Shown: positions 20,484 to 53,436 of the stretch, piece after piece
Position numbering within the stretch: position 1 is the first letter of the stretch
Layout of the letters: every line of letters starts with the position of its first letter
Virus record (IMG/VR): IMGVR_UViG_3300021137_000001
Coordinates: 1-64,000 of that record
From: a virus
Reading direction: 5' to 3' (one strand)
Length of the DNA stretch: 64,000 nucleotides
Made by a program: the position numbers and the translations under genes
The notes under the pieces: generated by a model
What the model saw: only the letters and a program-made list of their open reading frames with translations
Database searches by the model: none
Told to the model about the DNA's origin: nothing

Positions 20484-21401
20484 ATGGCACAAACTCCAGA
20501 CAGCGTCTTAGTTAAAAGACCCTACCAATCAGAAACATTTACAGAAGAACAGCTCTTAGAATTTGCTAAGTGTGCTGACCCAATCACTGGGCCGGAATAC
20601 TTTATGAGTCATTACTTCTACATACAACATCCTACTAAAGGACGTATGTTGTATCAGCCGTTTGAATATCAAAAACGCTTAATTGAAACATATCACAATT
20701 ATAGATTCAGTATCAGTTTAATGCCACGTCAAACTGGTAAATCAACAAGTGCTGCCGGATACTTACTATGGTACGCAATGTTCGTACCCGATGCAACAAT
20801 TCTTATCGCGGCACACAAATATACAGGCTCGCAAGAAATTATGTCACGTATTCGTTACGCATATGAACTATGCCCTGACTTTATACGTGCTGGCGTAACA
20901 ACATACAACAAAGGTAATATCGATTTTGAAAATGGCTCACGTATTAACTCGGCTACAACGACAGAAAACACAGGTCGCGGTATGTCTATATCATTATTAT
21001 ATTGTGATGAGTTCGCATTTGTACGCAGTACAATCGGTCGTGAATTTTGGACTTCTATCAGTCCTACACTAGCAACAGGCGGTAAATGTATTATCACATC
21101 AACTCCTAACTCAGACGAAGATCAATTTGCTACTCTGTGGAAGGGAGCCAACAAATGCGTGGACGATTTTGGAAACGCCACTGCGTTAGGAGTTAATGGG
21201 TTTAAATCATTCCGTAGTTATTGGAGAGAACATCCAGATAGAGATGACACGTGGGCAACGGAACAACGTGCGCAATTAGGTGATGAACGCTTCCGTAGAG
21301 AGATGGATTGCTGTAACGGTGATACAATACTACAATTAGAAATTAATGATGAGCAAAAAATAGTCACAATTGGTGAATTGTTTAATATAATCGATAAATA
21401 A
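20484..21401 (+). CDS. gp17: terminase large subunit gp17, ATPase half, fused to a 30-residue N-intein
   Basis: Residues 1-275 are the packaging motor ATPase: Walker A MPRQTGKST (80-88), Walker B LLYCDEFAF (171-179), and the coupling motif TSTPN (205-209). From residue 276 (base 21309) the sequence CCNGDTILQLE begins an intein block A and runs only 30 residues to a stop. The nuclease half is in the separate gene at 22424-23506. This short N-intein matches the architecture of atypically split TerL inteins such as AceL-TerL. Trans-splicing after REMD and before CEFII would restore a 521-residue TerL. Confidence 0.9.
   Translation: MAQTPDSVLVKRPYQSETFTEEQLLEFAKCADPITGPEYFMSHYFYIQHPTKGRMLYQPFEYQKRLIETYHNYRFSISLMPRQTGKSTSAAGYLLWYAMFVPDATILIAAHKYTGSQEIMSRIRYAYELCPDFIRAGVTTYNKGNIDFENGSRINSATTTENTGRGMSISLLYCDEFAFVRSTIGREFWTSISPTLATGGKCIITSTPNSDEDQFATLWKGANKCVDDFGNATALGVNGFKSFRSYWREHPDRDDTWATEQRAQLGDERFRREMDCCNGDTILQLEINDEQKIVTIGELFNIIDK
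21393..21400 (+). promoter_or_regulatory. late promoter element before the terL endonuclease
   Basis: GATAAATA overlaps the last codons of the N-intein half of terL, 31 bases before the ATG of the endonuclease. The endonuclease in uvsW has an equivalent element. Confidence 0.5.
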
Positions 21402-21431
21402 TTGGAGAAGACCAATTTAATTGAGAAATGT

Positions 21432-22433
21432 ATGAGTGATGCAAATTATGTAATATCGAAAATAGATAACAAAAACTATTGTGTATCTAACGGTCAGTTT
21501 ACAAAACATCTCAGAACAAATCAACTCACATATCAAGCATATTATGAAAAATATATAACAGGTACTATTAAATTATGTAGTTGTAGTAAACCATTGACCT
21601 TTTATCAAAAAAATCACACCTATGCTAGCAGTTGCGGAAACCCTGTATGTGTGGGTAAAACTATAGCTAAATCAAAACAATTATGGACAGACGAGCAGAA
21701 GCTATCGGATTCAGCAAACAAGAAAAAAGCTGCCAATGCTAAGACAGACAAACAGAAAGAGCTGCAAGTGGCTCGAGCCAGAGCAACTTTTATGCGCAAG
21801 TATGGAGTTGAATGGAGTTCTAAGTTTGCCGACCAAAAAGAAAAATCTAGAAAGACAAAGAAAGAAAAATATGGTAGCGAAACATATAATAATAGCAAGC
21901 AAACAAGCAATGCCTGGCAAGCAAAGACACTTGATGAAATTTCCAATATAGTATCTAAACGTCGTGCAACTTGTATGGATCGATTTGGGGTCGAAAATGC
22001 TTTAATGAAACCGGAAGCTAGAATAAATTCTGCTAAATCAAATAGTATAGGTCGAGCATTTGTTATGCCATCGGGTAAGGTTGTTGGGGTTCGTGGGTAC
22101 GAAGATACTGTGCTGGCCAACTTATTAAAAGAATACAGCGAATCAGAATTATTATTTGATGATAGGAAAACTATATATAGTTTACCGGTGTTTGCATATA
22201 TAAACGTAAACTTACACCTTGCAACATATTATCCGGATATCTATATTTCAAAAGAGAATAAAATCATCGAAGTAAAAAGCATGTGGTGGTGGAACGGAAA
22301 TGGTAATGAAAAATATAATTCTAGACTAATTAATAATTTACGGAAGAAAGATTCAGTAATAGAGCAAGGATACGAATACGAAGTTTGGTTGTTTAAAAAT
22401 AAAACAGAATATGAGATACTAGCATGGAAATAA
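21432..22433 (+). CDS. free-standing homing endonuclease inside the terL split-intein locus
   Basis: About 333 residues from ATG 21432 (a TTG lies in frame at 21402). It begins with a possible zinc site (CSCSKPL...SSCGNPVC), followed by tandem RxTxxxKYGxE units (RATFMRKYGVEW, KTKKEKYGSETY, RRATCMDRFGVEN) that look like DNA-recognition repeats. The C-terminal catalytic part has RGYEDTVLANLL and YYPDIYI then KIIEVKS, resembling the Vsr-like EDxHD / PD-(D/E)XK class found beside split inteins in metagenomic phage genes. Its stop overlaps the start region of the C-intein gene. Confidence 0.82.
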   Translation: MSDANYVISKIDNKNYCVSNGQFTKHLRTNQLTYQAYYEKYITGTIKLCSCSKPLTFYQKNHTYASSCGNPVCVGKTIAKSKQLWTDEQKLSDSANKKKAANAKTDKQKELQVARARATFMRKYGVEWSSKFADQKEKSRKTKKEKYGSETYNNSKQTSNAWQAKTLDEISNIVSKRRATCMDRFGVENALMKPEARINSAKSNSIGRAFVMPSGKVVGVRGYEDTVLANLLKEYSESELLFDDRKTIYSLPVFAYINVNLHLATYYPDIYISKENKIIEVKSMWWWNGNGNEKYNSRLINNLRKKDSVIEQGYEYEVWLFKNKTEYEILAWK

Positions 22434-23506
22434 TGTATAAAGAAAACAAACACGGTTATAAAGTGTTAACTCCTGATGGATATAAATCCTTTGTAGGCAT
22501 TCGGTGTCTTGGCAAAAAAGAAATCCACCGGATTGAATTGGGTACTGACTATTGGATTGAGTGTACATCTAATCATAAGGTATTTGTTAGTGATACTATC
22601 AGAGTTACTGTTGATGAACTTGTAGTAGGAGATATAGTATTAACTAATAGTGGCAATCAACAAGTATCTGCTAAATTAAATTTAGGAAGAGAAGAATTAG
22701 TATACGATTTAATCGAAGTAGACGGTGGGCATCGTTATTATACAAATGGAATATTGTCGTCAAATTGTGAATTTATCATCTGGGATGAAACACTTATTAA
22801 CCCAGGGCATTTAGTTGAAATGCAAGGTATTGACCCAATCGAACAGCAAGGACAAATACGTTGGTATAAAAAGCCAAATCCAGCATTTACATATCTCGTT
22901 GCACTTGACCCAAGTCTAGGCACAGGCGGCGACCCAGCGGCAATACAAATATTTGAACTCCCAAGTTTTATACAAGTAGGCGAGTGGCAACATAATCGCA
23001 CACCAGTACAACGTCAAATTGTTATACTAAGTGAGATTACTAAGTACCTTGCTGAAACTGTGCCAGTTAATAGCATATACTATAGCATGGAAAACAACTC
23101 TATCGGCGAAGCGGCATTAGTAACAGTAGCATCGATGGGCGAAGAAAACATTAAGGGAACATTCTTAAACGAACCACGCAAATCAAGTGGCGGAAGTTAT
23201 AGAAAGGGATTTAATACAACACAACGTTCTAAGCTATCTGCTTGCGCAAAGTTAAAAAACTTAATTGAATCTAAACGCTTAACAGTAAACAGTAAGAACT
23301 TAATCTCAGAACTAAAAACATTTGTTGCAAACGGCTCTAGCTTTGCTGCTAAACCCGGCGAAACAGATGACTTAGTAATGAGTGTAGTACTAATGGTACG
23401 CATGGCTATGCTATTGCAATCATACGATGCAAGTTTAGATAGTGCGATGCGTGATACGTTAGATGATTTCATCGAGCCTCTTCCCTGGATAATGACTACA
23501 TATTAG
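22424..23506 (+). CDS. gp17: C-intein fused to terminase large subunit nuclease half
   Basis: The first 114 residues are the C-intein: YKVLTPDGYKSFVGIRCLG, the TSNHKVF block B at about 49-55, DELVVGDIV, and VYDLIEVDGGHRYYTNG then SSN with the terminal Asn at 22763-22765. The next residue is Cys (base 22766), the +1 splice nucleophile. The C-extein of 246 residues is the RNase H-fold nuclease: LDPSLGTGGD, SMENNSIGEA and GETDDLVMS carry the three acidic metal ligands. An alternative start at ATG 22433 overlaps the endonuclease stop as TAATG and would shorten the intein to 111 residues. Confidence 0.9.
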   Translation: MEIMYKENKHGYKVLTPDGYKSFVGIRCLGKKEIHRIELGTDYWIECTSNHKVFVSDTIRVTVDELVVGDIVLTNSGNQQVSAKLNLGREELVYDLIEVDGGHRYYTNGILSSNCEFIIWDETLINPGHLVEMQGIDPIEQQGQIRWYKKPNPAFTYLVALDPSLGTGGDPAAIQIFELPSFIQVGEWQHNRTPVQRQIVILSEITKYLAETVPVNSIYYSMENNSIGEAALVTVASMGEENIKGTFLNEPRKSSGGSYRKGFNTTQRSKLSACAKLKNLIESKRLTVNSKNLISELKTFVANGSSFAAKPGETDDLVMSVVLMVRMAMLLQSYDASLDSAMRDTLDDFIEPLPWIMTTY

Positions 23507-49870: not shown

Positions 49871-50664
49871 TGGCAACAAAAATTTTAGTAGTCGGATGTT
49901 CGTTTTCAAATGGTCATGGGCTCAATGATCAGGACAATGGCGATTGTAATAAATCTGATCCAAAACTTTGGGTTAATCAGGTATGCAATAAAGTTTGGCC
50001 TAATTCAGACATAACTAATCTTGCGAAAACTGGAGCAAATAATAATTGGATATTCTTTGAAACTATAAGCGCATTATTATTAAATGAATATGATATTGTT
50101 TTAGTAGAATGGACGGCGATACCTAGATTCAATATTAAAGTAGGATTAGAATTGTACACCGTTGAATCAATGTTAAATTCAGAATCAATTGATATTAATA
50201 TTAATAACAATATAACTTATACCAGTAAATGGCTAAACTCATTAGGTGATAATTTACGAAAAATACATAACGATCATTGGGATATTTTAGATCTTGTCAA
50301 ATATATAAATGTCATATTGCAAATACACAAAGGAAAAACATTTTTTATCAATGGGTTGGCTCCGTGGCCAGATCAATATTTTACTAAGAAAAAAATTCAG
50401 TATCCATCTGAATTATCAAATTTTGAACAAAATATGTTTGCTATAAGTACCAGAGATGACGATGAAATATTTGCTCTTTATGAAATGGTACATAATCAAT
50501 ATCAACAATATGGAGGAGTACGTCAAGAGCATTGGTTAAATTTATATAGCTCATTGATGTCGATGCAAGTTGATTATATAAGCGATACAGATCTGCACCC
50601 AGGTTACAAAAGTCAAGATATATTTGCAGAATATTTAATATCACAACTAAGAGAAAATAATTAA
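49870..50664 (+). CDS. SGNH/GDSL-type hydrolase
   Basis: 264 residues. Block I VVGCSFSNGHGLND (nucleophile Ser), NLAKTGANNNWIF (Asn of block III), and C-terminal DTDLHPGYKSQ (Asp/His dyad) are the SGNH signatures. Family members are acyl- or carbohydrate esterases. It is AT-rich compared with its neighbours and inserted between the HARP-like gene and uvsW with one-base overlaps, an accessory gene possibly deacylating a glycan. Confidence 0.75.
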   Translation: MATKILVVGCSFSNGHGLNDQDNGDCNKSDPKLWVNQVCNKVWPNSDITNLAKTGANNNWIFFETISALLLNEYDIVLVEWTAIPRFNIKVGLELYTVESMLNSESIDININNNITYTSKWLNSLGDNLRKIHNDHWDILDLVKYINVILQIHKGKTFFINGLAPWPDQYFTKKKIQYPSELSNFEQNMFAISTRDDDEIFALYEMVHNQYQQYGGVRQEHWLNLYSSLMSMQVDYISDTDLHPGYKSQDIFAEYLISQLRENN

Positions 50665-51680
50665 TGGCACTAGCTAGACTGATAATCAAAGATGAAGTTA
50701 ATGTAAAGATCGAAGGACTAGACTTACATGAACGCAAAGAACTCAGCAACATGTTCAAGTATGAAATTCCGGGCGCACGTTATCTACCAAGTGTACGTCT
50801 TGGTCGTTGGGATGGCAAGATTGCTTACTTTCAGTTAGGTGGTAGCACGTACACTAACTTGCTTGCTGAGATATTACCATACTTAGATGAGCGTGGGTAT
50901 AACATTGAGTTGGAAGATTTACGTGACTATAGAACACAGTTTAGTTTTGCGCAGGTAACAGAACAAACATTCGCACACAAAGTATGGCCAGCTAAACATC
51001 CGATTGCGGGCCAGCCAGTTGTGCTACGAGATTATCAAATTGAAATCATTAACAAGTTTCTTGAGAACCCACAGTGCATACAAGAAATTGCAACTGGCGC
51101 AGGTAAGACATTAATTACTGCGGCACTAAGTTATAGCTGTGAACAATACGGTCGTACTGTAGTAATCGTACCAAACAAATCACTTGTTACACAAACAGAA
51201 GCAGACTACATTAACTTGGGACTAGACGTTGGTGTTTACTTTGGTGACAGAAAAGAATATGGACGTACACATACAATATGTACATGGCAAAGTCTTAACA
51301 TTATGCTTAAGAACACTAAGTCAGCAGAAGCCGATGTTACTATAATGGAATTTTTAGAAGGTGTTGTATGCGTTATGGTCGACGAATGTTTTGATAGTGA
51401 TAGTAAGGTATTAACTCCGACTGGATATGTGGCTATTAAAAATATAAAAGCTGGTGACAAAGTAATTAACTATTCGGAAAATACTAAAGAATTTAAGATA
51501 GATACTGTAGTTAAACAACATATAAATTTAACTAATTCGTCTAGCGAAAAAATGTATGAGCTAACCTTTGATAATGGAGTATCTATCCGTGTAACTGGCA
51601 ATCATAAATTTTTAACTAATTTGGGTTGGTGCAGGGCCGACGAATTATCAGATAACCATGAAATTGTAAATAAAACATAA
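50664..51680 (+). CDS. uvsW: UvsW helicase N-half fused to N-intein
   Basis: Residues 1-241 are the UvsW N half: a DNA-binding N domain (PSVRLGRWDGKIAYF), Q-like LRDYQ (121-125), motif I IATGAGKT (142-149) and the first half of motif II, VDE (239-241). At base 51387 the N-intein begins: CFDSDSKVLTPTG, GDKVINYS, and block B RVTGNHKFLT, 97 residues to the stop. The helicase DECH motif is thus split between DE and CH. Splicing with the 52597 gene would restore a 485-residue protein (T4 UvsW is 503). Confidence 0.9.
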   Translation: MALARLIIKDEVNVKIEGLDLHERKELSNMFKYEIPGARYLPSVRLGRWDGKIAYFQLGGSTYTNLLAEILPYLDERGYNIELEDLRDYRTQFSFAQVTEQTFAHKVWPAKHPIAGQPVVLRDYQIEIINKFLENPQCIQEIATGAGKTLITAALSYSCEQYGRTVVIVPNKSLVTQTEADYINLGLDVGVYFGDRKEYGRTHTICTWQSLNIMLKNTKSAEADVTIMEFLEGVVCVMVDECFDSDSKVLTPTGYVAIKNIKAGDKVINYSENTKEFKIDTVVKQHINLTNSSSEKMYELTFDNGVSIRVTGNHKFLTNLGWCRADELSDNHEIVNKT

Positions 51681-51683
51681 ATA
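51676..51683 (+). promoter_or_regulatory. late promoter element before the uvsW endonuclease
   Basis: CATAAATA overlaps the stop of the N-intein half, 24 bases before the ATG at 51708. Confidence 0.5.
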
Positions 51684-51707
51684 CATATAACTAATGCAGA
51701 AGTCCTT

Positions 51708-52610
51708 ATGAAAATACAATACAATAAATGGATAGAATTACTCAATGACAGACTAATAGAACATAATCAATCTATTAGAGTAATCGAGTACTCTAGTGGC
51801 ACATTAACATTGTCGAGCGGTGAAACTTTACTAGATAATAAGTTTGAGAAATTTAAAAAACGAGTTATGAATAAAAAAACCACAATGTGGGTAGATAATA
51901 TGGATAACTTATTCCATGGTACAGTTACTGAAAAAGAAATTAAATCTAAATTGGCGGCAATTGGCGGGTTGTCAGTACAAGAAAAATACGGTGAAAATAT
52001 TAGATTAAATCTTAATACAGGTACCCCATGGAATAAAGGTACCAAAGGACAAAATATAGGTACAGGTACTCCCCGACCACAAGCAGTTAAAGACAAAATT
52101 AGTGAAAAAAATTCCGGCAACAGAAATGGTATGTACGGAATTAAGATGACTGAACAAGATAGACAAAAAAAATCATCATTAATGAAACAAAAAATATTAG
52201 CAGGAGAGTTTACTCCTAACAGCAATAATAGAAATACTCATTGGGACACGAAATTTAATAGTAAATCGTATAGGTCAAGTTGGGAGGCATTATATCAATA
52301 TATTAACCCTTTTGCAGAATACGAGACACTGAGGATAGAATATAATTTGCATGATAAAAGACATATTTATATTGTGGATTTTGTAGATCATGTCAATAAA
52401 CTAGTGGTAGAAGTTAAACCTAAAGAATTGTGCATTGGAGAGAAATTTGGTGCGAAAATGTCGGCACTAACTGCATGGGCCAACAATAATAACTATAAAA
52501 CACTATTAGTTAATAAAAAGTGGTTACAAGAACAAGTAGTTGATATTGATTACAGTATGTTTGATACAAAAACTGCAAAAAAAATAAAGGCGTTATATGA
52601 AACTAATTAA
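51708..52610 (+). CDS. homing endonuclease inside the uvsW split-intein locus, gp4-like catalytic core
   Basis: 300 residues. The middle has NUMOD3-like elements (NSGNRNGMYGIKMTEQDR) and GTPWNKGTKG. The C-terminal core is SYRSSWEALYQYI, YIVDFVDH, LVVEVKP, then KMSALTAWANNNNYKTLLV: the same motif order and wording as the phage gp4 head-completion nuclease (YRSSWE, PDF, EIKP, WA). It has its own late promoter and overlaps the C-intein gene by 14 bases. Confidence 0.85.
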   Translation: MKIQYNKWIELLNDRLIEHNQSIRVIEYSSGTLTLSSGETLLDNKFEKFKKRVMNKKTTMWVDNMDNLFHGTVTEKEIKSKLAAIGGLSVQEKYGENIRLNLNTGTPWNKGTKGQNIGTGTPRPQAVKDKISEKNSGNRNGMYGIKMTEQDRQKKSSLMKQKILAGEFTPNSNNRNTHWDTKFNSKSYRSSWEALYQYINPFAEYETLRIEYNLHDKRHIYIVDFVDHVNKLVVEVKPKELCIGEKFGAKMSALTAWANNNNYKTLLVNKKWLQEQVVDIDYSMFDTKTAKKIKALYETN

Positions 52611-53436
52611 CCGAACAGAAATATCTAAACCGGCCAATGTATATAATTTACATATAGAAAATGACCACAACTATATTGTCGACGGAGCAGTGGTGTCAAA
52701 TTGTCATATGGCCAAAGCGGATGCGCTGAAAACTTTATTAACGGGAGTGATGTCACACATACCTATCCGATGGGGCTTAACGGGCACAATACCTAAAGAA
52801 ATGTACGAGTTTATGAGCCTAAAGTGTTCATTGGGTGAAGTCATTGGGCGTTTAAGTGCAAGTGAATTACAAGATCAGGGTGTACTTGCTAACTGTCATG
52901 TAAACGTTGTACAGCTAATAGACCATGTTGAATATAAGGATTATCAAAGCGAGTTAAAATATCTATTAGAGACAGACGCACGTATTGATTATATAAGTAA
53001 AATGATAGAGCGTATTAGATTAACTGGCAATACACTTGTCTTAGTTGATCGCATCGCACCGGGCAAAGCATTAGTTGAGCTAGTTAAAGATGCTGTGTTT
53101 GTATCAGGAGGAACAAAAGCAAATGATAGGAAAGAAAGTTATGATGAGTTTGCAACCAGTGATAACTTTGTTGCTGTTGCCACTTATGGGGTTGCTGCTG
53201 TTGGTATCAATATCCCTCGCGTTTTTAACCTTGTGCTCATTGAGCCTGGTAAGAGCTTTGTGCGGGTCATCCAAAGTATCGGGCGTGGCATTCGTAAAGC
53301 GGAAGACAAAGATTTCGTCCAAATCTGGGACGTAACGTCAACTTGTAAGTTTGCTAAACGACATCTTACAGTCAGAAAGAAATTTTATTCTGAGGCCTCA
53401 TATCCTTACGCAATAGAAAAAACCGAATGGAAATAA
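52597..53436 (+). CDS. uvsW: C-intein fused to UvsW helicase C-half
   Basis: Residues 1-35 are the C-intein: NVYNLHIENDHNYIVDG (block F) and VVSN (block G, Asn at 52699-52701). The C-extein starts Cys-His (52702), completing the DECH box, then motif III WGLTGT, VRVIQSIGRGIRK (motif VI) and VLVDRIAPGKALVEL (motif IV). 244 residues of extein. Short C-intein with a long N-intein is the canonical split position, unlike the terL intein. Confidence 0.9.
   Translation: MKLINRTEISKPANVYNLHIENDHNYIVDGAVVSNCHMAKADALKTLLTGVMSHIPIRWGLTGTIPKEMYEFMSLKCSLGEVIGRLSASELQDQGVLANCHVNVVQLIDHVEYKDYQSELKYLLETDARIDYISKMIERIRLTGNTLVLVDRIAPGKALVELVKDAVFVSGGTKANDRKESYDEFATSDNFVAVATYGVAAVGINIPRVFNLVLIEPGKSFVRVIQSIGRGIRKAEDKDFVQIWDVTSTCKFAKRHLTVRKKFYSEASYPYAIEKTEWK

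What the first reader, a model, noticed from the sequence alone, without database searches (positions are those of the whole stretch)
20484..23506. terL broken into two genes by an atypically split intein with an endonuclease between
The ATPase half ends in a 30-residue N-intein that starts CCNGDTIL and stops. A free-standing endonuclease follows, and the next gene opens with a 111-114 residue C-intein ending SSN before CEFII and the nuclease half. Splicing gives REMD-CEFII, joining ATPase and nuclease domains. A very short IntN with a long IntC matches AceL-TerL, the atypical split known from Antarctic lake metagenome data. The packaging motor would depend on trans-splicing.
Basis: partly seen in the sequence, partly recalled or inferred. 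Interest (0 to 1): 0.85.

Follow-up and report, generated by a model that had tools for sequence, protein, structure and literature searches.

The report
DNA-packaging motor rebuilt by split intein
A giant bacteriophage carries the gene for its DNA-packaging motor in two separate pieces, which a two-part self-splicing protein element (a split intein) should join into one enzyme, with a gene for a DNA-cutting enzyme that probably spreads the element lying between them; it is a well-supported new case of a known arrangement, and its relatives swap cutting enzymes and carry up to three such breaks in one motor gene.

Summary
In a 329-kb phage record, terL is split into a 275-aa ATPase half plus a 30-aa IntN (20484-21401), a free-standing endonuclease gene (probable start ATG 21432, end 22433), and a 111-aa IntC plus a 246-aa nuclease half (22433-23506). 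Relatives have an uninterrupted terL joined exactly at RREMD|CEFII. The IntC matches the solved atypical split inteins Cat and VidaL by sequence and fold. Three other assemblies carry the identical sequence. Junction residues are invariant in all 71 distinct inteins found at this site, and the intein halves are under purifying selection in close relatives. No RNA intron is detectable. Protein trans-splicing is by far the best explanation, though splicing itself was not shown. It is a fractured gene of the AceL-TerL kind, so the kind is known. New here: the nuclease belongs to an uncharacterised family (DUF7487, PD-(D/E)xK-like); other phages carry an HNH nuclease, no nuclease or a fused intein at the same site; intein and terL trees conflict (horizontal spread); all 71 lack the usual penultimate histidine; one relative has three split inteins in one terL; and this phage has a second fractured gene (uvsW).

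The parts
20484..21308 (+). terL N-extein: ATPase half (275 aa, ends ...FRREMD)
   Evidence: Pfam Terminase_6N 7.3e-16; phrog_36964 5.9e-70; contains MPRQTGKS (Walker A) and LLYCDEF (Walker B)
21309..21401 (+). IntN, 30 aa (CCNGDTILQLEINDEQKIVTIGELFNIIDK) plus stop TAA
   Evidence: Begins exactly where intact relatives continue with CEF; Cys1 in 49/49 IntN at this site, lengths 29-37 aa
21432..22433 (+). Free-standing homing endonuclease, DUF7487, 333 aa; ORF open from TTG 21402; N-terminal Cys cluster, C-terminal PD-(D/E)xK-like motif (YYPDIYI...IIEVKS)
   Evidence: PF24308 5e-31, 108.8 bits against cut-off 27; phrog_3339 homing endonuclease 8.2e-6; alignment A2
22433..22765 (+). IntC, 111 aa (alternative start ATG 22424, 114 aa), block B TxxH, block F D, ends ...GILSSN
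   Evidence: CatC 6DSL 5.6e-16 and VidaL 6VGV 2.1e-12 by profile; AF2 pLDDT 94.9; Foldseek VidaL TM 0.83, Cat 0.81
22766..23506 (+). terL C-extein: RNase H-like nuclease half, 246 aa, begins CEFIIWDETL
   Evidence: phrog_36964 9.2e-46; T4-type gp17 nuclease structures 3C6A 3.5e-16, 3EZK, 3CPE

Best explanation
The large terminase gene is fractured by a mobile, atypically split intein. The phage makes an ATPase-IntN precursor (35 kDa), a separate homing endonuclease, and an IntC-nuclease precursor (40 kDa). The 30-aa IntN docks into the nearly complete HINT fold of IntC. Cys1, Cys+1 and the terminal Asn of the intein then carry out class-1 protein trans-splicing and release a seamless 59-kDa TerL joined at REMD-CEFII, the boundary between the ATPase and nuclease domains. 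The DUF7487 nuclease probably cuts intein-less terL alleles of co-infecting relatives, so that repair copies the IntN-nuclease-IntC cassette into them (homing). Shown: anatomy, exact empty site, homology and predicted fold of IntC, conservation, horizontal distribution. Inferred: splicing, the need for splicing, and cleavage of the target by the nuclease.
For: Exact gap-free junction in 141 intact loci; empty-site DNA 54-62/66 identical. IntC homologous to Cat and VidaL by sequence and structure. Cys1 in 49/49; block B His, block F Asp, terminal Asn and Cys+1 in 71/71. Low dN/dS in relatives: L004/L018 IntN 0.076, endonuclease 0.107, IntC 0.105 against 0.099 for the C-extein; L041/L040 IntC 0.059. 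Identical sequence in three other assemblies excludes a sequencing error. AT-rich cassette, 27-34% GC against 40-41% in the exteins. Intein and terL trees conflict: holding the window's terL with that of its nearest intein relatives is rejected (p-AU 6e-4 and 9e-46); holding its intein with those of L004 and L018, its intein-bearing terL neighbours, gives p-AU 0.02. Intein presence changes at least 14 times on starred branches of the terL tree. No Rfam intron. Only one terL in the record.
Against: No splicing has been observed. The penultimate residue is Ser, not the usual His; the whole site family lacks His, and functional inteins without it are known (PMC4031507). IntN alone is too short to find any PDB relative. 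The IntN comparison window/L182 has dN/dS about 0.7, on only 30 codons. The endonuclease model is weak and its Foldseek matches are not significant.
Confidence: 0.9

Rival explanations
1. The two halves work as separate subunits without splicing, as described for a phage ribonucleotide reductase split by a homing endonuclease gene into two working peptides.
For: The break lies at the ATPase/nuclease domain boundary and each half is a complete domain; the reductase precedent is described in PMC10448857.
Against: Does not explain a folded IntC with invariant catalytic residues, low dN/dS in IntN and IntC, or breaks inside the Walker A and Walker B motifs in relatives, where halves could hardly work apart.
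Confidence: 0.04
2. The break is removed at the RNA level by a self-splicing intron, as shown for terL of phage ICP1.
For: ICP1 terL is spliced as RNA and neighbours a homing endonuclease gene (PMC10448857).
Against: No group I or II intron in Rfam even at E 10; IntN and IntC are open, homologous to inteins and conserved as proteins; fused relatives such as L256 read through in frame as mini-inteins.
Confidence: 0.02
3. Decaying or dead intein: the gene is broken and packaging uses another terminase or a helper phage.
For: Penultimate His is absent; IntN window/L182 comparison shows little constraint, on few codons.
Against: No second terL in the record; all other catalytic residues intact; the His loss is shared by all 71 inteins at the site; both extein halves keep their catalytic motifs; the same sequence is found in three other assemblies. 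The record may be incomplete.
Confidence: 0.04

Closest known systems
AceL-TerL and GOS-TerL atypical split inteins, and their consensus Cat-TerL (6DSL)
   Same: Host gene terL; very short IntN (25, 37, 30 aa) with long IntC (104, 115, 104 aa) and Cys+1 (PMC11766414). IntC homologous to CatC at 5.6e-16. Here 30 + 111 aa.
   Different: About 35% identity to CatC. Penultimate Ser; a penultimate His in AceL/Cat is recalled from memory, not tested. Here seen in an assembled jumbo-phage genome together with its nuclease gene.
Fractured genes: split intein with a free-standing homing endonuclease gene between the halves (Dassa et al. 2009, doi 10.1093/nar/gkp095)
   Same: Same three-gene layout; the paper is cited as the source of this arrangement by PMC6892783 and others. 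The paper itself is not held.
   Different: The nuclease here is DUF7487, PD-(D/E)xK-like, not shown to be the endonuclease family of that paper (Vsr-like from memory). Split is of the short-IntN type.
Vibrio phage Va1 terL (MK387337, unannotated as an intein)
   Same: Split intein at the corresponding terL site: RQNFE|CVSGSTI... stop...GVLNHN|CNFLG.
   Different: The nuclease is fused to the IntC-terL-C reading frame; the penultimate His is present; the terminase is distant.
Pseudomonas jumbo phage MIJ3 split PolB intein with HNH endonuclease (PMC6892783)
   Same: Jumbo phage, with the nearest class of isolate terL (59% in the N half); fractured gene with nuclease between.
   Different: Host gene is DNA polymerase; nuclease is HNH; the terL of this phage group is uninterrupted (PA5oct).

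Membership tests
Atypically split TerL inteins (AceL-TerL/GOS-TerL/Cat kind) | Short IntN (15-37 aa) and correspondingly long IntC encoded on separate genes | tested here: met
   30 aa and 111 aa on separate ORFs; range from PMC13014065
Atypically split TerL inteins (AceL-TerL/GOS-TerL/Cat kind) | IntC homologous to the family's solved members, HINT fold | tested here: met
   CatC 5.6e-16, VidaL 2.1e-12; Foldseek E 1.9e-6 and 2.3e-7
Atypically split TerL inteins (AceL-TerL/GOS-TerL/Cat kind) | Nucleophiles: Cys/Ser1, Cys+1, terminal Asn | tested here: met
   Cys1, Cys+1, Asn111 in the window and in all relatives at the site
Atypically split TerL inteins (AceL-TerL/GOS-TerL/Cat kind) | Penultimate His in block G (usual in inteins, not required for membership: functional inteins without it are known, PMC4031507) | tested here: not met
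   Ser in the window; 0 of 71 His at this site
Atypically split TerL inteins (AceL-TerL/GOS-TerL/Cat kind) | Same insertion site in terL as AceL-TerL | not tested
   AceL flanks recalled as EFE/CEF; sequence not available to the tools
Atypically split TerL inteins (AceL-TerL/GOS-TerL/Cat kind) | Splices in trans | not testable with these tools
   Needs expression
Fractured genes (Dassa 2009) | Gene halves each fused to one half of a split intein, free-standing endonuclease gene between | tested here: met
Fractured genes (Dassa 2009) | Endonuclease of the new family described there (not required for the layout) | tested here: inconclusive
   Protein is DUF7487 with PD-(D/E)xK-like motifs; the paper is not held
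DUF7487 (PF24308) | Score above the curated cut-off | tested here: met
   108.8 bits against 27
T4-type large terminase | ATPase with Walker motifs and RNase H-like nuclease with acidic residues | tested here: met
   Terminase_6N 7.3e-16; Terminase_6C 4e-4, just under its cut-off; gp17 nuclease structures; LDPSLGTGGD, MENNSIGE and TDDLVMS visible

The most novel reading that the evidence does not exclude
This terL site hosts a large, horizontally moving family of split inteins. It has two deep clades, has exchanged its homing-endonuclease cassette between a DUF7487 PD-(D/E)xK-like and an HNH type, has sometimes lost it or re-fused, splices without the penultimate histidine, and sits in motor genes that in some relatives are broken by three split inteins into four genes, so that one motor protein needs three trans-splicing reactions.
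Probability: 0.7. Interest if true: 0.7.

Novelty: new member of a known kind. Interest (0 to 1): 0.5.

Why it matters
It places an AceL-TerL-like atypical split intein in an assembled giant-phage genome with its own nuclease and exact empty sites, so mobility, nuclease exchange and split/fused transitions can be followed at one site. The site-wide loss of the penultimate His gives a natural series for studying how splicing manages without it. Several dozen new short-IntN inteins are candidates for protein labelling. DUF7487 gains a testable function. Whether a virus can time, or lose, DNA packaging through trans-splicing becomes a direct experiment.

Tried and rejected
IntN alone against the PDB: no hit, too short. 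Endonuclease against the PDB by sequence: nothing relevant; its AF2 model (6 sequences, pLDDT 72.6) gave only weak Foldseek matches to PD-(D/E)xK nucleases, best E 0.014, not used as proof. RNA intron: no support. Promoter and terminator scans no better than shuffles. No tandem repeats at the locus, no tRNA in the window. The Dassa 2009 and Sekar 2022 papers are not held. No paper mentions DUF7487. The mechanical endonuclease start TTG 21402 was rejected in favour of ATG 21432 after alignment with homologues. The automatic census missed the N half in some loci (left as unknown) and misread L073's IntN (left out of the IntN counts).

Full report
Observation. The window lies in a 329,321-base virus record. 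terL is present as two ORFs: 20484-21401 (275 aa of ATPase half followed by CCNGDTILQLEINDEQKIVTIGELFNIIDK and a stop) and 22424/22433-23506 (IntC ending GILSSN, then CEFIIWDETL... and the nuclease half); an endonuclease ORF lies between them. Pfam and PHROGs identify the halves as large terminase, the middle ORF as DUF7487 and homing endonuclease, and the start of the third ORF as intein-like. The endonuclease most likely starts at ATG 21432 (homologues). Its TAA stop overlaps ATG 22433 as TAATG, which suggests coupled translation (inference).

More than chance, and not an error. Of 163 loci examined, 141 have terL continuous exactly at RREMD|CEFII with no extra base, 17 have an insertion there (the window's own copy and three identical assemblies among them), and 5 were incomplete. 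Relatives up to 92% identical in the N half are uninterrupted; their DNA across the empty site is 54-62 of 66 bases identical to the window's flanks. Three other assemblies carry the window's sequence without a single difference. The record has only one terL. The cassette is AT-rich: IntN 27%, endonuclease 34%, IntC 33% GC, against 41% and 40% in the exteins.

What the insert is. The IntC matches CatC (6DSL, consensus atypical split intein) at 4.8e-11 alone and 5.6e-16 as a 13-sequence profile, and VidaL (6VGV) at 1.4e-5 and 2.1e-12. Its AlphaFold2 model has pLDDT 94.9; Foldseek ranks VidaL first (TM 0.83, rmsd 1.3) and Cat second. The literature gives 25/104 aa for AceL-TerL, 37/115 for GOS-TerL and 30/104 for Cat (PMC11766414); here 30/111. 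By alignment the break falls about residue 354 of T4 gp17, at the ATPase/nuclease boundary (domain limits from general knowledge).

Conservation. Among 71 distinct inteins at this terL site, block B His, block F Asp, terminal Asn and Cys+1 are invariant, and Cys1 is present in all 49 IntN found. dN/dS in the close pair L004/L018 is 0.076 (IntN), 0.107 (endonuclease), 0.105 (IntC) and 0.099 (C-extein); L041/L040 IntC is 0.059. Such constraint on both halves is expected only if they are used. For the window against its nearest intein relative (L182) synonymous sites are near saturation and IntN is too short to be informative.

Missing histidine. The penultimate residue is Ser in 61 and Lys in 10 of these 71, His in none, whereas 30 of 34 other IntC-like hits, mostly at other terL sites, have His. 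One of the two search patterns required Ser or Lys there, and one pattern required SNC, so this is partly ascertainment; but loci fetched through the endonuclease or the terL N half show the same. Functional inteins without this His are known (PMC4031507).

Endonuclease exchange. In the same slot some phages carry the DUF7487 nuclease (window, L041, L073, L080, L175, L177 and others), others an unrelated HNH nuclease (L004, L018, L117, L128 and others), L070 has none, L071/L072 keep only a remnant of the DUF7487 gene, and five have a fused, uninterrupted intein, such as L256. The IntC tree has two deep clades (both starred at 99): one without any HNH case (30 rows, 22 with DUF7487, the window among them) and one mainly HNH (40 rows, 5 with DUF7487); the tree needs five changes between the two nuclease types. 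The counts are not prevalences, because loci were partly fetched by their nuclease.

Mobility. In the terL tree (145 rows) the window groups with intact genes (12 intact and one of each intein clade in its smallest starred set of 14); intein presence changes 24 times, at least 14 on starred branches. Holding the window's terL together with those of its nearest intein relatives is rejected (p-AU 6e-4 with L182; 9e-46 with L182 and L282), and holding its intein with those of L004 and L018, which lie in the same terL neighbourhood, gives p-AU 0.02. So the intein moved between phages; that the nuclease drives this is the standard homing inference and was not tested. These are quick trees, and the groups were named after the trees were seen.

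Wider picture. Relatives carry inteins at two more terL sites, Walker A (RQLGK|TTTAAGY) and Walker B (LLY|CDEF). L071 has split inteins at all three, leaving terL in four ORFs. Isolates also have terL inteins: Atu_ph07 (Walker A, split), Krischvirus JK32 (Walker B, nuclease fused to IntN), Campylobacter phage CP21 (three sites) and Vibrio phage Va1 (the same site as here).

Second fractured gene. The same window has a uvsW-like helicase split by a canonical split intein with a TnsA-like nuclease gene between: 50664-51680, 51708-52610, 52597-53436. Intact relatives read VDEVHMAKAD, the window VDE|C...VVSN|CHMAKAD.

Verdict. Trans-splicing of TerL is the best explanation (0.9). The kind (fractured gene; atypically split TerL intein) is known, so this is a new member, with unusual family-level features: DUF7487/HNH exchange, site-wide lack of the penultimate His, and multiply split terL in relatives. 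Not shown: splicing, the need for splicing, and the target of the nuclease.

Noticed in passing
window 50664-53436: Second fractured gene: uvsW-like helicase split at VDE|C by a canonical split intein, with a TnsA-like/NUMOD3 nuclease ORF (51708-52610) between the halves; intact relatives up to 94% identical exist (VDEVHMAKAD).
   Followed up: partly
L071:2286-5668 (also L072): terL in four ORFs with three split inteins (Walker A, Walker B, CEF site); three trans-splicing reactions would be needed for one TerL. The endonuclease at the CEF site is reduced to a remnant; close relatives L073-L076 keep it.
   Followed up: partly
L256:1389-3170; also L210, L186, L196, L198: Fused, nuclease-less versions of the same CEF-site intein, so split and fused states interchange; L256 also has a split Walker B intein with its own nuclease.
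   Followed up: partly
L161:1257-4368 (Shigella phage JK32, Krischvirus): terL annotated as two overlapping terminase genes looks like a Walker B split intein with the nuclease fused to IntN; not annotated as an intein.
   Followed up: partly
L162:2501-4692 (Agrobacterium phage Atu_ph07): terL split inside Walker A by a split intein that appears to begin with Ser1, with no nuclease between the halves.
   Followed up: partly
L337 (Campylobacter phage CP21): terL carries three inteins, the middle one split with a GIY-YIG-like nuclease gene between; its IntC is not annotated.
   Followed up: partly
L206, L243, L277 and others (Walker B inteins): Many end in His-Gln instead of His-Asn (11 of the 34 IntC-like hits outside the CEF site end in Gln).
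   Followed up: no
L193: CEF-site split intein with a 2-kb gap holding neither of the two nuclease types; its content was not identified.
   Followed up: no
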